From a virus: DNA of 24,259 nt. The stretch's first letter is position 1. Every line of letters starts with the position of its first letter. The notes below the pieces were generated by a model. The model searched no databases. It was not told the origin of the DNA and saw nothing but the letters and a program-made list of their open reading frames with translations. The translations under genes were made by a program, and so were the position numbers. Location: positions 1 through 24,259 of IMG/VR virus record IMGVR_UViG_3300047472_000453; one strand, given 5' to 3'. This document shows, one piece after another, positions 10,291-21,165 of the stretch.

Positions 10291-12606
10291 TCAAGCGCCT
10301 CCGCGTGCCTGGGGCTTGTGGTCATCAGAAGGAGATTGGCGTCCCGGCAAAATAGCCCTCGCGATCATCGCGCCGCTATGATCGTGATAATGGAAGTCTC
10401 CGCCCACGCCTCCATCATTGGCGGCGAAAGGCGCATTGCTGTTGGCCGCGCCGCCGCCCTGCAGCATGGCACGAAGCGGACTGGCGAGGTTCGCCGGCAG
10501 GACCATCTCGTTCTTGTGCAGCAGGAATGGGGCATTGTCATAGGGCACGGCGCCCATGCCCCCTTCTGCGCTGAAAAGCGATTGGCCCAGTTTGATTACG
10601 CCGAATGCGGCCGCTGCGGCCAGCGCCGGGGCGATGATCCAGCCATAGGGGCCAAGGCTGGACACGGCAGCCCAGACATGGCCTGCTGCCACGGCGGCGC
10701 TGTGGGCAATCTGCTTGATCGCGGTTGCGGCCGATAGCACGAGCGACTTGGCCGATGCGCCCTCCTCGGCGGTCGTTCGCGTGGTGATGCCGAACAGGGC
10801 CGAGGCGGTTTTCGACAGTTCGGCGCTGATCCACTTCTGGAGCATCTGCGAAAGGCTGCTCGATACGATCCCCACCATGCCGCGATAGAGATTGCCCAGC
10901 GTCGCGCTGAACCCCTGCTGCATCGTGGCAAGCTTCGCGATATTGTCCGCCCACAAGGATGCGGTGGAGGCGATCGCCTGCCGCTGGAGCTGGGTGCGCT
11001 CCAGCTCGTGCTGGCGGGTCAGATCGCTCTTCTTCTGCTGGTAGAGCTGTTCGGCGGCCAGAAGCTGATTGTTCAACGCATTCAGCCGAACCGGATCTTT
11101 GGTGCCTTTTTCTTCATCGGCGATATCCGCGCCGATCGATGCGACCTGGATATCGTGCCGGCGATCTTCGAAGCGCTCCTGTTCGGTCAGCAATTGATCG
11201 TTCGTTTCGATGCCCATCGAAACCCGGAACTTGGCCGCATTCTCATCTTCGGTGATGTTTCCCAGCGCGCGCTGCCGGCCGGCGCTGGCGGTCTGCGTCT
11301 CGATCTGGTGCCTTTGCTCGGTGGCGGCCTTGTCGATCTGGGTGATCCGATCCTGCGCGTCCTTATATTCTTTCGATTGCGCGCCGTACGTCGCCTTCAT
11401 CTGGTCGGCGAATTTGGTGGCGATGTCTAACTTTTGGGCTTCATTCTTCTGCGCGGCTTCGAGCTCCTTGCCGAGAGCGACCACCTTGGCGTCGTAATCC
11501 TCCTTGATGATCCCCTTGCGCAGCGCAAGATATTTGGTTTCGACGGCAAGATATTCAGCGTTGCTAAGATCGTTTCGCTTAAGGATCTCGTGCCAGTAAT
11601 CGGCCTCGGTCTGCTTCGAAATTTCGGCGGATTTGTTTTCGACGTCAGCTTTAGCTTCGAGGGCGACCTTCTGCCGGCTGAGCTCGGCCTCCCAGTCAGC
11701 CGTCCTACTTTTGGTTTGGCGAGGTTCGGGCGCACTGGCGCCGCCCTGCTTCAGTGCTGCGTCTCGCGCGCGCATCAGCTGCTCTGCCTGCTTTTCGTAG
11801 GCCTCCTTAGTCATGGTGCTGCCGGGCTTCCTGAACTCGGCATTCAACTCCGTTAGGGCGTTCTTGAACTTTATTGTTGCTCCAGCGGCCTTGTTAGTTG
11901 CGGCTTCAGCATTCTGCAGAGCGATTTCGGCTTCACCACTGCGGATCGCATCGTTCGCTTCTTGGGTCTTTTTTGCGTTGTCGAGTATGAGATCCGTCAA
12001 ACTTGCGATATTTTTTTCGGCAATCGTGCCTTTCATCAAGGCGCCGAACACCCCATCCGGATTTATTGGGTCGTTGGCTGCCGCAACGGCTTCGGCTAGC
12101 TTGGTGCGAGATAATTCAAGCGATGCGGCAATAAGGCTGCGTACGGCAACTTCATGATCACGAGTAAATTTTGCAGCGTCTATATCTTTTTGAATGGAGA
12201 TGGATGTTTGGCTGTCATTGGCGACGCTGGCGTTGTTTAAACGCTTGATCGCGTCGCTAAGGCCGTCCGCTGCTTCTTTATGTCTGTCTTCCGCTTCTTT
12301 CGCTTCAGAATGTTTCGACCACAAAGCGCTGAGGAGGCCAATTCCGGCGGATATGGCAATCCCCCAAGGCCCCTCCAGAAAGGCCACCACCCCGGCGCCG
12401 CCCTTCATCATCCCGGCGATGGCTTCGGTCACCTTGATGCCATGTTCGGCGAAGAGTGCCATCGGGCTGGCGCCTTCCACGAAGCCCGAGGCGACGCCGG
12501 TCAGCTCGGAGACAAGACCGGCCAGTGCCGATCTCGCCTCGTCGACCGTCGGCTTCACGTTCGCCGCGTCGGCGACGATTTTAACGTCGATCTGCTCGTC
12601 GGCCAT
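10291..12606 (-). CDS. Tape measure protein, 771 aa
   Basis: The ATG at 12606 (MADEQIDV) is preferred over 12612 because AGGGG is 7 bases before it and only 1 base before the other. The protein has a hydrophobic segment at about 50-95, a long charged alpha-helical and coiled-coil body (about 95-590, rich in Glu, Lys, Ala and Gln), a second hydrophobic Ala/Gly stretch near 640-680, and a C-terminus with FLLHKNEMVLPANLASPLRAML and a His-rich HYHDHS. This is the standard plan of a siphovirus tape measure that sets tail length and is ejected into the envelope. It follows the G/GT chaperones, as expected. At under 800 residues it predicts a fairly short tail. No peptidase or lytic transglycosylase motif is seen. 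Confidence 0.92.
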   Translation of the reverse strand: MADEQIDVKIVADAANVKPTVDEARSALAGLVSELTGVASGFVEGASPMALFAEHGIKVTEAIAGMMKGGAGVVAFLEGPWGIAISAGIGLLSALWSKHSEAKEAEDRHKEAADGLSDAIKRLNNASVANDSQTSISIQKDIDAAKFTRDHEVAVRSLIAASLELSRTKLAEAVAAANDPINPDGVFGALMKGTIAEKNIASLTDLILDNAKKTQEANDAIRSGEAEIALQNAEAATNKAAGATIKFKNALTELNAEFRKPGSTMTKEAYEKQAEQLMRARDAALKQGGASAPEPRQTKSRTADWEAELSRQKVALEAKADVENKSAEISKQTEADYWHEILKRNDLSNAEYLAVETKYLALRKGIIKEDYDAKVVALGKELEAAQKNEAQKLDIATKFADQMKATYGAQSKEYKDAQDRITQIDKAATEQRHQIETQTASAGRQRALGNITEDENAAKFRVSMGIETNDQLLTEQERFEDRRHDIQVASIGADIADEEKGTKDPVRLNALNNQLLAAEQLYQQKKSDLTRQHELERTQLQRQAIASTASLWADNIAKLATMQQGFSATLGNLYRGMVGIVSSSLSQMLQKWISAELSKTASALFGITTRTTAEEGASAKSLVLSAATAIKQIAHSAAVAAGHVWAAVSSLGPYGWIIAPALAAAAAFGVIKLGQSLFSAEGGMGAVPYDNAPFLLHKNEMVLPANLASPLRAMLQGGGAANSNAPFAANDGGVGGDFHYHDHSGAMIARAILPGRQSPSDDHKPQARGGA

Positions 12607-12616
12607 CGGCATTCCC

Positions 12617-13347
12617 CTATGTGTGGGTCGAAGGCAGCCCCAGGCGTGGCCGAGTCAGCTCGGCCATAGGCAGGTTGCCGAGGCCCTGGAGCGGATCGGC
12701 GGAATAGGCTGGGATCGATGGCGAGGCGGTGAGCGTCATGCCCCAGCCGCTCGCAAATGCGGCCAATGCGATATGGACCGGGGGGCCATATTCAGCCCAA
12801 TGCTCCCGCAGTCGGGCGATCTCTGGTAGATCCCAATCCTCGAGGATCGTCTTTTTCGACCCTCCTTCGACGCCGGCGGCGACCAACTCGAACAGGATCG
12901 AGCGAAGCTGCTCTCCTAGGCTCCCGCCCCGTCCCTCTGCGGAGCGGGAGCCACGGCTTCCCCCTGGGTCAGGCCGCTATGGCCCAGCACGGCGAGCATC
13001 CCTGCCATGATCGAACCGATACCATCGGGAGATGGATCGACGTCGTCCAGCAACTGCAGGACTGTGATTGACGGATCGATCCTGGAGATGCCGATATGTA
13101 GGATACGGATCGCGTCTGCTGCCTCTTGCAGCGCCTCTGCGGTCGTCATCGCTGCGGTGATCTGTCGGGATTTGGCCAGCCGCTCGTCGGCCGAATCGGT
13201 TGGCAGGATCGTGACCCCCGCTCGTTCGCCGATCGCCGCGCTGCGTGCCTGCTGCGCGTCGAGGATCGGCGCCGCTTCGATCATCTGGCCGAGCTTGTAG
13301 GGCGCGAGATCGAACGCGCGCCCGAGGAAGTGGACGACCGCGCTCAT
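12617..13347 (-). CDS. Tail assembly chaperone GT fusion by -1 frameshift, ~243 aa
   Basis: The second frame (open from 12976 to the stop at 12617) has no ATG or plausible SD in the overlap and is exactly -1 relative to the G frame. If ribosomes slip at GGGGGAA (12964-12958), residues 1-130 of the G protein are joined to about 113 residues that include GEQLRSILFELVAAGVEGG, WDLPEIARLREHWAEYGPP and a Pro/Ala-rich C-terminus. The position just before the tape measure, the overlap and the direction of the shift match lambda gpG/gpGT, where the T part binds tail tube subunits and G coats the tape measure. A TTG at 12886 could start a free T protein but has no SD. Confidence 0.72.
12916..13347 (-). 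CDS. Tail assembly chaperone G-like protein, 143 aa
   Basis: The ATG overlaps the tail tube stop (ATGA). The protein is largely helical after a short N-terminal part (AQQARSAAIGERAG, ADERLAKSRQITAAMTTAEALQEAADAIRI split by loops) and ends in a Pro/Ala-rich tail, APAPQRDGAGA. Location between tail tube and tape measure and the frameshift overlap with the next frame mark it as the G component of the G/GT pair. The sequence itself is not one I recognise by family name. It is expected to coat the tape measure during tail assembly and to be absent from the finished virion. Confidence 0.75.
   Translation of the reverse strand: MSAVVHFLGRAFDLAPYKLGQMIEAAPILDAQQARSAAIGERAGVTILPTDSADERLAKSRQITAAMTTAEALQEAADAIRILHIGISRIDPSITVLQLLDDVDPSPDGIGSIMAGMLAVLGHSGLTQGEAVAPAPQRDGAGA
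12919..12964 (-). promoter_or_regulatory. Programmed -1 frameshift signal (slip site plus hairpin)
   Basis: In the G frame the message reads CAG GGG GAA GCC, giving the run GGGGGAA at 12964-12958. After a 5-base spacer comes a stem of GGCTCCCGC (12952-12944) with GCGGGAGCC (12927-12919), 9 perfect GC-rich pairs around a 16-base loop. Slip site, spacer and stem have the geometry of a bacterial -1 frameshift cassette. The slip site is not a perfect XXXYYYZ: GGG re-pairs fully, but GAA would have to re-pair with GGA. Confidence 0.65.
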
Positions 13348-14102
13348 TCGCCGGTGCCGATCGTCAGTACGTTGCCCTGCGGATCGGCGAAGACCGTGAA
13401 CTCGAAATCGGGCAGCATGAAATCGTCGAGCTTGGTCGCCATCGACAGTTTGGTCGAAAGACACGCGTTGGCGCTCACCACTAGCGGCTTGCCGTTCTGC
13501 GCGACGAAGAAGTCGATGCGGAAGGTCGGCGCGTAACCCATCGGGATATTGACGACGGTCAGCTTGCGGCCGGTGGTCGAGCTTGCCGTATATTGATAGC
13601 TGATGATCACGCTCTTGCCGGTATCGCTGGAGGCGAACGTGTAGACGCCGGCGGCGACGCTATACTGCCCGGTGGTCGGCCCGGAAACGACGCGCGCATA
13701 AGCCAGTCCGCTCGTATCGGTGACGCCCAGATCGTTGGCCCAGGTGCCCGATCCCGGGATGGTCGGCGTGATCGCGAACGGGGTGGCTGGAATGGCCGCT
13801 GCCGGCGGGTTGATCACGTCGCTGATCGTGCCGACGACCATCGACTGGCCGAAGAACAGACTGTTCAGCAGCATGCCATTGATCTGTGCGAACGATGCCT
13901 TGCCGCTGATCTTGCCCTTCCCGCGCCCAACCGCGATCGGGAACTGGTTCTGGCCGTACAGCTCCTTGGTGTCGAAGCTCATGTCGAGGCTGACATTCTG
14001 CAGCACGCCGAACTGGACGGGGGTGGGGTTGGCAAGCGTGGTGCCATAAGCGTCGGTGGTAGCGGTGCCGATCAGGCTGCCCGCGCCGAAAACGGTTTGC
14101 AT
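13344..14102 (-). CDS. Major tail tube protein, 252 aa
   Basis: The ATG has AGGAG upstream. Residues 28-90 (PVQFGVLQNVSLDMSFD..., KGKISGKASFAQINGMLLNSLFFG) and 185-250 form the beta-rich body typical of siphovirus tube proteins, ending in LPDFEFTVFADPQGNVLTI. Between them lies a segment with YSVAAGVYTFASSDTGKSV (147-165), a beta-sandwich motif often found in tube proteins of related phages. Location after the tail-terminator-like gene and before the G/GT chaperones supports the call. The stop overlaps the start of G, so translation is coupled although tube protein is needed in much larger amounts. Confidence 0.85.
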   Translation of the reverse strand: MQTVFGAGSLIGTATTDAYGTTLANPTPVQFGVLQNVSLDMSFDTKELYGQNQFPIAVGRGKGKISGKASFAQINGMLLNSLFFGQSMVVGTISDVINPPAAAIPATPFAITPTIPGSGTWANDLGVTDTSGLAYARVVSGPTTGQYSVAAGVYTFASSDTGKSVIISYQYTASSTTGRKLTVVNIPMGYAPTFRIDFFVAQNGKPLVVSANACLSTKLSMATKLDDFMLPDFEFTVFADPQGNVLTIGTGE

Positions 14103-18824: not shown

Positions 18825-19736
18825 TCAGGCGGTGCGGCGCCGGTCCTGGACGATTGCGCGACGGCGCAGGAAGCCGATCAGCCCGAAGCCGATGATGAAG
18901 CTCATCCAGCTCGCGGGCTCGGGCACGGGCGAAACTGGCGGTGTAAGCGAGCCGGATGGCTGGCTCGATCCTGTATTCGCCGGCGGAGGCGGAGGCGCCT
19001 GGAAGATCACCGGCGGCACCGACGGTGCGGTAACGGCAGGGGATGGCGTCGGTGGCGTGGGCGGCGACGGATCCGGGGTTGCGGTCAGGGTCAGGGCTGG
19101 TGCCGGCGTGCTGTCGGGCGCCGGCGACGTGGGCGTGCTCGTGACGGGTGCGGAGATGATTGCGCTCTCCGGCGTCTCATGCGGTTCGGTCGTTTTGGTG
19201 AACAGGCTGCTTTGCGGGCTGCCGGGGGTAAGGATGAACGGCCCCCAGGCACCGATGCTTTGAATGGCCGAAAGCTTCGCCCAAACCGGCGACACATCCA
19301 TCGTCCGATAAGCCAGCGCCGGTAGAGCGCCGATCGGCTTCACCGCTCCGATCGCGGTGACCGAGATCGGCAGATTATGCGGTGCGTCCGACGCGACCGC
19401 CAACATGCGCTGCCAGGCTTCGTCGCCCGGATCCTGTGCAATGAGCATTGACGGATAAACGGGCACTTCGGGCGCGCCGGATTCAGATGCGGGTGCGGAG
19501 GAGCCGTCGAGATGGATGGAAACGCCCCGCGCCGGTGTGTTTTCCTTGTGCGTGAACGGCCCGATGTGGAGGGTCGCTGCCGATGCCACCGCGATCAGGC
19601 TCATCGCCAGCACGACGCCGCCTGACAGGATCGCGCTGCGAACCATGCCGATCATTTCGATATCCGGCGCGGCGATCCCGCCGGTTACTACCGGCGGACC
19701 AAGAAGGTGGGCCGGCAGGTCCTCCATCTGCTCCAT
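18825..19736 (-). CDS. Proline-rich PEP-CTERM protein (cargo gene), 303 aa
   Basis: The C-terminus has the sorting signal VPEPASW (271-277), a hydrophobic helix (about 276-290) and RRR (291-293), the PEP-CTERM tripartite signal processed by exosortase in Gram-negative bacteria. A second hydrophobic segment at 33-54 (SAILSGGVVLAMSLIAVASA) is a signal peptide or anchor preceded by about 30 residues; starting at Met28 or Met31 would give a cleaner signal peptide. Residues 190-270 are Pro/Ser/Thr-rich, probably a cell-wall or surface spacer. No catalytic domain is recognised. It is a host-type surface protein, unusual inside a phage head module, and is preceded by a CtrA-type box. Identity of the sorting signal is strong; function is unknown. 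Confidence 0.85.
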   Translation of the reverse strand: MEQMEDLPAHLLGPPVVTGGIAAPDIEMIGMVRSAILSGGVVLAMSLIAVASAATLHIGPFTHKENTPARGVSIHLDGSSAPASESGAPEVPVYPSMLIAQDPGDEAWQRMLAVASDAPHNLPISVTAIGAVKPIGALPALAYRTMDVSPVWAKLSAIQSIGAWGPFILTPGSPQSSLFTKTTEPHETPESAIISAPVTSTPTSPAPDSTPAPALTLTATPDPSPPTPPTPSPAVTAPSVPPVIFQAPPPPPANTGSSQPSGSLTPPVSPVPEPASWMSFIIGFGLIGFLRRRAIVQDRRRTA

Positions 19737-20355: not shown

Positions 20356-21165
20356 ATGAACGCCGATACGCTCCCCAACAACGCCCCCAATCGTCGCATC
20401 GCTCTGCTCATTGACGCGGACAATGTATCGCATGGGCATATCGCAGCCATGCTGGCCGAGCTGTCGAAATACGGCACCGCCAATATCCGGCGGGCCTATG
20501 GCGATTGGGGCAGCAGCGGCCTCAAAGGCTGGAAGGGCAAATTGCTCGATTTCGCGATCCGGCCGATCCAGCAATTCAGCTATACGGCCGGCAAGAACGC
20601 GACCGATATCGCGCTCGTCATCGATGCGATGGAATTGCTCTACACCCAGAAACTGGATGCCTTCTGTATCGCATCGAGCGACGGCGATTTCACGCCGTTG
20701 ATCATGCAGCTTAAGGCCAATGGCCAAGACGTTTACGGCTTTGGCGAGCGCAAGACGCCGTCCCCGTTCGTCAATGCCTGCACGACTTTCCTCTATCTCG
20801 ACAGTATCGAGGAGGGGGCCGCGCCTGCGCCAGTCGGCGAGCCGGTTGTGAAACCGAAACCCAAGGCAAAAGCTAAAGCGGCGAACACCTCTCCGTCCAA
20901 ATCCCTCGCGATGGATGCCAAATTGATCGCCATCTTGCGCGGTGCGGTGGAAGCCGTGGCGTATGACGATGGTTGGGCCTCGATGGCGGCTGCCGGTAGC
21001 GCGGCCAAGCGGCAGGCCCCGATCGATCCACGCAATTATGGCGCCAAGAATTTCCCTCGCCTGTTCGAGGCGACGGGCCTGTTCGAAATCTTCAAGGCGG
21101 AGAGTGGCCAGAGTTACGTTGCCGACAAGAGCAACAAGGATCGGGCGAAGGAGCCCTTGCTCTAG
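20356..21165 (+). CDS. NYN-domain putative RNase with C-terminal OST-HTH/LOTUS domain, 269 aa
   Basis: The ATG has AAGGA 6 bases upstream. Residues 14-150 form a NYN (PIN-like, LabA/DUF88) nuclease domain: IALLIDADNVSHG with Asp20 and Asp22, NATDIALVIDAM with Asp84 and Asp90, and ASSDGDFTPLI with Asp109 and Asp111, the metal-binding acidic residues of the family. A Pro/Lys/Ala linker (157-178) leads to a C-terminal domain (about 185-260) with AILRGAVEAV and GAKNFPRLFEATGLFEI, typical of OST-HTH/LOTUS RNA-binding modules. It probably cleaves RNA. It is on the opposite strand to the phage late genes, with its own promoter, and so is likely expressed in the lysogen. Such proteins are also common as chromosomal genes in this group. 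Confidence 0.9.
   Translation: MNADTLPNNAPNRRIALLIDADNVSHGHIAAMLAELSKYGTANIRRAYGDWGSSGLKGWKGKLLDFAIRPIQQFSYTAGKNATDIALVIDAMELLYTQKLDAFCIASSDGDFTPLIMQLKANGQDVYGFGERKTPSPFVNACTTFLYLDSIEEGAAPAPVGEPVVKPKPKAKAKAANTSPSKSLAMDAKLIAILRGAVEAVAYDDGWASMAAAGSAAKRQAPIDPRNYGAKNFPRLFEATGLFEIFKAESGQSYVADKSNKDRAKEPLL

What the first reader, a model, noticed from the sequence alone, without database searches (positions are those of the whole stretch)
12919..12964. Complete -1 frameshift cassette for the G/GT tail chaperones, with an atypical slip site
The T-like frame has no ATG or SD, is exactly -1 to G, and overlaps it. At the overlap lie GGGGGAA in the correct phase, a 5-base spacer, and a perfect 9-bp GC stem. 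The slip site deviates from XXXYYYZ: the A-site Glu tRNA would pair with GGA at its middle base only poorly. So either the frameshift rests mainly on P-site GGG slippage, or the site is a new variant driven by the strong stem.
Basis: partly seen in the sequence, partly recalled or inferred. Interest (0 to 1): 0.72.

Follow-up and report, generated by a model that had tools for sequence, protein, structure and literature searches.

The report
Tail-chaperone -1 ribosomal frameshift site
A prophage makes a short and a long form of a tail-building helper protein by letting some ribosomes slip back one base at GGGGGAA; this is a standard trick of tailed phages, and GGGGGAA is the usual slip site in this phage family rather than an odd one.

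Summary
On the minus strand, G (13347-12916) lies between the major tail protein and the tape measure gene. It carries GGGGGAA (12964-12958) in the phase needed for a -1 shift. A 5-nt spacer and a GC hairpin follow; the hairpin is 13 bp, longer than the 9 bp reported. The -1 frame, open from 12976 to 12617, has no ATG and no conserved start before the T domain. The fusion is 243 aa. Among 62 non-duplicate loci (the window plus 61 relatives), 40 carry in-phase GGGGGAA (0.08 expected) and 10 carry GGGGGAG; most others carry GGGAAAN or A-rich heptamers. The Gly codon at the site is GGG in 51 of 55, against 13 of 59 at a nearby conserved Gly. A published survey found about a thousand GGGGGAA sites in actinophage frameshifts. 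The site is therefore not atypical. The strong stem covaries in the four closest relatives but is weak or absent in most of the wider family, so it does not define a new class. The A-site codon is almost always GAA or GAG, so A-site tRNA probably matters too.

The parts
12916..13347 (-). G gene (tail assembly chaperone, short form, 143 aa)
   Evidence: ATG start overlapping the end of the major tail protein gene; iterative HMM links it to G of 61 relatives at the same place; model pLDDT 87.8 with a disordered tail from residue 130
12958..12964 (-). slip heptamer G_GGG_GAA
   Evidence: in phase; 40 of 62 loci carry it in phase, 0.08 expected; GGG used for 51 of 55 Gly at this column
12953..12957 (-). 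5-nt spacer GCCGT
   Evidence: spacer length 5 kept in L001, L002 and L086
12919..12952 (-). stimulatory hairpin, 13 bp with an 8-nt loop
   Evidence: -29.7 kcal/mol for 12957-12916, z -4.2; two compensatory pairs in L086
12617..12976 (-). T open frame (-1 relative to G); the frameshifted part of GT begins after the slip site
   Evidence: open frame; homologous -1 frames in 61 relatives; nearly invariant PP motif
13344..14102 (-). major tail protein gene (neighbour upstream; used to find relatives)
   Evidence: PHROG 8234 E 2e-84, a family of unknown function, with a weak hit to a virion structural protein family; role inferred from position directly before G/T and the tape measure gene
10291..12612 (-). 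tape measure protein gene (neighbour downstream)
   Evidence: PHROG 339 tail length tape measure protein, E 1.2e-17

Best explanation
This is the G/GT tail assembly chaperone pair of a siphovirus-type prophage, expressed by programmed -1 ribosomal frameshifting. Most ribosomes make the 143-aa G. A minority pause at the hairpin with Gly-tRNA on GGG (P site) and Glu-tRNA on GAA (A site) and slip back one base. The P-site tRNA re-pairs perfectly on GGG; the A-site Glu tRNA re-pairs on GGA with one middle U-G pair. They then read the -1 frame to make the 243-aa GT, probably with junction ...TQGE-SRGSR.... As in lambda, G would coat the tape measure protein and the T part would recruit tail-tube subunits. 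Shown here: sequence elements, phase, conservation and covariation. Inferred: that slippage occurs, its efficiency, the tandem mode and the assembly role.
For: In-phase GGGGGAA in 40 of 62 loci against 0.08 expected; 40 of 41 copies in G genes are in the -1 phase. GGGGGAG in 10 more, and classic heptamers such as GGGAAAN or A-rich runs in most of the rest. GGG codon at the site in 51 of 55 against 13 of 59 at a control Gly. T-frame homology in the -1 frame in 62 of 67 loci tested. No conserved T start codon. Hairpin z -4.2, with two compensatory changes in L086. The G model ends its fold at residue 129-130, at the slip site. Literature: about a thousand GGGGGAA sites in actinophage frameshift data (PMC10885494), phi16 (PMC5506516; in-phase copy checked), lambda role (PMC5009743).
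Against: No experimental product. The window's G and T match no Pfam or PHROG family on their own, and Foldseek gives no significant match for G or T, so the chaperone identity rests on position, coupling to T, and weak hits of relatives to TAC families. A measured efficiency for GGGGGAA was not found; G_GG.G_GG.U without stimulator is poor in E. coli (PMC4066793).
Confidence: 0.93

Rival explanations
1. Only the P-site Gly tRNA slips on GGGG, and the A site is then filled from the -1 codon GGA, giving the junction ...TQGG-SRGSR.... This is a sub-model of the frameshift, so its confidence overlaps with the best explanation.
For: GGG to GGG re-pairing is perfect, while Glu tRNA on GGA has a middle U-G pair; a 'five' motif with other A-site codons is also listed in the actinophage survey.
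Against: Next to GGG the A-site codon is GAA or GAG in 49 of 55 loci, never GAU or GAC at that column, although those give the same -1 codon GGA. GAA is enriched over GAG compared with background (Fisher p 2e-7). A protein-level need for Glu could also explain part of this.
Confidence: 0.25
2. T is translated from its own internal start after G, not by frameshifting.
For: AGGAG overlaps the G stop; TTG at 12886; some relatives have ATG or GTG in the T frame.
Against: The window start candidate is not conserved (CTG in L001 and L002) and lacks an SD; several relatives have no start at all in the first 120 nt (L001, L035, L040, L082). It does not explain the slip site.
Confidence: 0.03
3. RNA polymerase slippage on the G run produces the frame change.
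For: Homopolymer of five G.
Against: A five-base G run is short for this (general knowledge); the site is fixed in one codon phase, and relatives use GGGAAAC or CCCAAAC, which lack a long run.
Confidence: 0.02
4. A chance or decayed overlap with no function.
For: No experiment.
Against: Enrichment and codon choice statistics across relatives.
Confidence: 0.01

Closest known systems
Phage lambda G/GT -1 frameshift (Levin 1993, Xu 2013/2014, cited in PMC5009743; slip site G_GGA_AAG from own knowledge)
   Same: Gene order major tail protein - G - T - tape measure; -1 slip near the 3' end of G; T only as GT fusion
   Different: Slip site GGGGGAA: perfect re-pairing in the P site and one U-G pair in the A site, the reverse of lambda; strong GC hairpin downstream; no recognisable sequence similarity by family search
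Actinophage tail assembly chaperones with GGGGGAA ('fivetwo' motif, PRFect, PMC10885494)
   Same: Identical heptamer at the annotated frameshift of the tail chaperone gene
   Different: Host group differs; the protein sequences were not compared here
Corynephage phi16 gp14/gp14A (PMC5506516)
   Same: GGGGGAA in phase with a downstream RNA structure; -1 frame runs on through orf15
   Different: Predicted H-type pseudoknot and internal SD there; simple hairpin and no upstream SD seen here

Membership tests
G/GT-type tail assembly chaperone frameshift cassette | Located between major tail protein and tape measure genes | tested here: met
   Tape measure gene by PHROG 339; the upstream gene, PHROG 8234 (unknown function), is taken as major tail protein from its position
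G/GT-type tail assembly chaperone frameshift cassette | T frame is -1 to G, overlaps it and lacks its own conserved start | tested here: met
   62 of 67 loci have a homologous -1 T frame
G/GT-type tail assembly chaperone frameshift cassette | Slip heptamer in phase near the 3' end of G, conserved in relatives | tested here: met
G/GT-type tail assembly chaperone frameshift cassette | GT fusion protein is made at low ratio to G | not testable with these tools
   Needs protein data
Known tail chaperone protein families (Pfam TAC, PHROG) | Sequence or fold match of G | tested here: inconclusive
   Window protein has no hit; single relatives hit Phage_TAC_12, Phage_TAC_19, PHROG 183 and 1442 weakly; Foldseek non-significant, with several tail chaperones among the top 50
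Canonical X_XXY_YYZ slip site | YYY in the A-site part | tested here: not met
   GGGGGAA has GGA there; matches the 'fivetwo' motif of PRFect
Stimulatory 3' hairpin | Stable stem a few nt downstream, kept by compensatory change | tested here: met
   z -4.2; two compensatory pairs among four close relatives, 29 of 500 shuffles as good, so modest; not general in the wider family

The most novel reading that the evidence does not exclude
G_GGG_GAR is a distinct class of bacterial -1 slip site, separate from X_XXY_YYZ, working by a perfect P-site re-pairing plus a tolerated middle U-G pair in the A site. In this phage family it comes in two layouts: close to the G stop (about 22-25 nt) without a strong stem, or 40 nt or more upstream with a strong hairpin (mean z -2.3 against -0.5, p 4e-4 after collapsing close relatives; exploratory).
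Probability: 0.3. Interest if true: 0.4.

Novelty: new member of a known kind. Interest (0 to 1): 0.2.

Why it matters
It extends GGGGGAA tail-chaperone frameshifting, reported mainly from actinophages, to a broad set of mostly proteobacterial prophages, where T is annotated as a separate hypothetical gene. The codon pattern gives a simple test of which tRNA slips at a site that breaks the textbook rule.

Tried and rejected
DNA-level search of phage records and tblastn of G: no match, since G is too divergent. Pfam and PHROG on the window's own G and T: nothing significant. Foldseek on G and T: no significant match. Rfam: no frameshift element. Stem as the driver of the whole class: rejected, since many GGGGGAA loci have structure z near 0. 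SD-like AGGAG at the G stop: rejected as a T start signal, not conserved. Accessions for mycobacteriophages L5 and Bxb1 were not held. G/T assignment failed in five loci (L045, L047, L057, L059, L083), which were left out. A first script for G/T extraction failed and was rerun.

Full report
The window holds a prophage structural operon on the minus strand: terminase, portal (Pfam), a major tail protein gene (13344-14102; PHROG 8234, a family of unknown function, role taken from position), then G, T, a tape measure gene (10291-12612; PHROG 339) and tail genes of a type also seen in gene transfer agents (Pfam Phage_phiJL001_Gp84_N, Phage_BR0599, Phage-tail_3, Rcc01698_C).

Observation. G runs from 13347 to 12916 and encodes 143 aa. 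The heptamer GGGGGAA lies at 12964-12958 and is read CAG GGG GAA in the G frame and GGG GGA in the -1 frame. After a 5-nt spacer comes a hairpin of 13 bp with an 8-nt loop; the 42-nt stretch to the G stop folds at -29.7 kcal/mol, z -4.2, with no shuffle as stable. The -1 frame is open from 12976 to 12617. The fusion is 243 aa. The only T-frame start near the overlap (TTG 12886) has no SD and is not conserved. All main claims of the finding hold; the stem is longer than stated, and an SD-like AGGAG at the G stop was missed but is not conserved and has no start behind it.

Relatives. The G protein itself finds only two close relatives in viral contigs, so the major tail protein was used: 74 viral and 10 genome loci. 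T finds one more (L086). After removing duplicates, 67 loci could be read for G and T, including the window. G and the -1 T frame are each linked to the window by iterative HMM in 62 of 67 (E-values are for a small set, and the two sets of 62 are not quite the same loci). In the 62 loci kept for counting, 40 have GGGGGAA in phase. Outside the overlaps the heptamer occurs 12 times in 481 kb, so 0.08 in-phase copies were expected. Ten more have GGGGGAG at the site, and most others have GGGAAAC, GGGAAAA, GGGGGGA, CCCAAAC or A-rich heptamers. Two loci (L015, L054) have no clear site. At the conserved Gly column, chosen without regard to codon, GGG is used in 51 of 55 loci, against 13 of 59 at a neighbouring conserved Gly; the preceding base is G in 54 of 55. 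This is selection on nucleotides, beyond the amino acids.

Literature. PRFect (PMC10885494) states that the 'fivetwo' motif was GGGGGAA in all of about a thousand cases in the SEA-PHAGES (actinophage) data, whose joined genes are tail chaperones. These are annotated frameshifts, not all tested. Phage phi16 has the same site (PMC5506516); I checked that it is in phase and that the -1 frame runs on. The role of G and GT in lambda is summarised in PMC5009743. So the slip site is not new.

Which tRNA slips? Gly on GGG re-pairs perfectly; Glu (UUC) on GGA keeps the outer pairs and has a U-G pair in the middle (inference from base pairing). If only the P site mattered, GAU or GAC would do as well, since they also give GGA in the -1 frame. 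None is seen at the conserved column; the codon is GAA in 39 and GAG in 10 of 55, and GAA is enriched over background (Fisher p 2e-7). This favours a contribution of the A-site tRNA, though a protein-level need for Glu is not excluded.

The stem. Across 58 loci, structure in the 60 nt after the slip site is stronger than in control windows (mean z -1.1 against -0.2, p 5e-6), but only 24% have z below -2, and many GGGGGAA loci have z near 0. Strong stems go with slip sites 40 nt or more before the G stop (exploratory). In the window's own clade the 5-nt spacer and stem are kept in L001, L002 and L086; L086 has two pairs changed on both sides. With four sequences, and arms joined by hand for the count, this is modest evidence (29 of 500 shuffles as good); sliding the partners destroys it. 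Third codon positions from the slip to the G stop are more conserved than upstream (0.75 against 0.53 in three sequences).

Protein. The G model is confident (pLDDT 87.8): a beta hairpin and helices, with a disordered tail from residue 130, so the frame change falls at the end of the folded domain. Foldseek gives no significant match; several tail assembly chaperones and a 'pre-tape measure frameshift protein G' appear among the weak viral matches. The T model is poor.

Verdict. A genuine, ordinary -1 frameshift cassette of a tail chaperone pair; a new member of a known kind, with a slip site common in this phage group and in actinophages.

Noticed in passing
window 18825-19736 (-): A protein with a C-terminal PEP-CTERM sorting motif (Pfam PF07589) lies inside the phage structural gene block, probably a cargo (moron) gene.
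   Followed up: partly
window 20356-21165 (+): A NYN nuclease-domain plus OST-HTH/LOTUS protein on the opposite strand, inserted within the structural block next to the portal gene.
   Followed up: partly
L037 and L081, G 3' end: GGGGGAG site 58 nt before the stop; L037 has a second in-phase copy at 73 nt, a possible duplicated slip site.
   Followed up: no
L015 and L054, G/T overlap: No recognisable -1 slip heptamer although G and a -1 T frame are present.
   Followed up: no
62 relatives, G/T overlap: Two layouts: slip site 22-25 nt before the G stop without strong structure, or 40 nt or more with a strong hairpin.
   Followed up: partly
L087, L089, L090: Public records annotate G and T as separate hypothetical proteins, with no joined GT.
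   Followed up: yes
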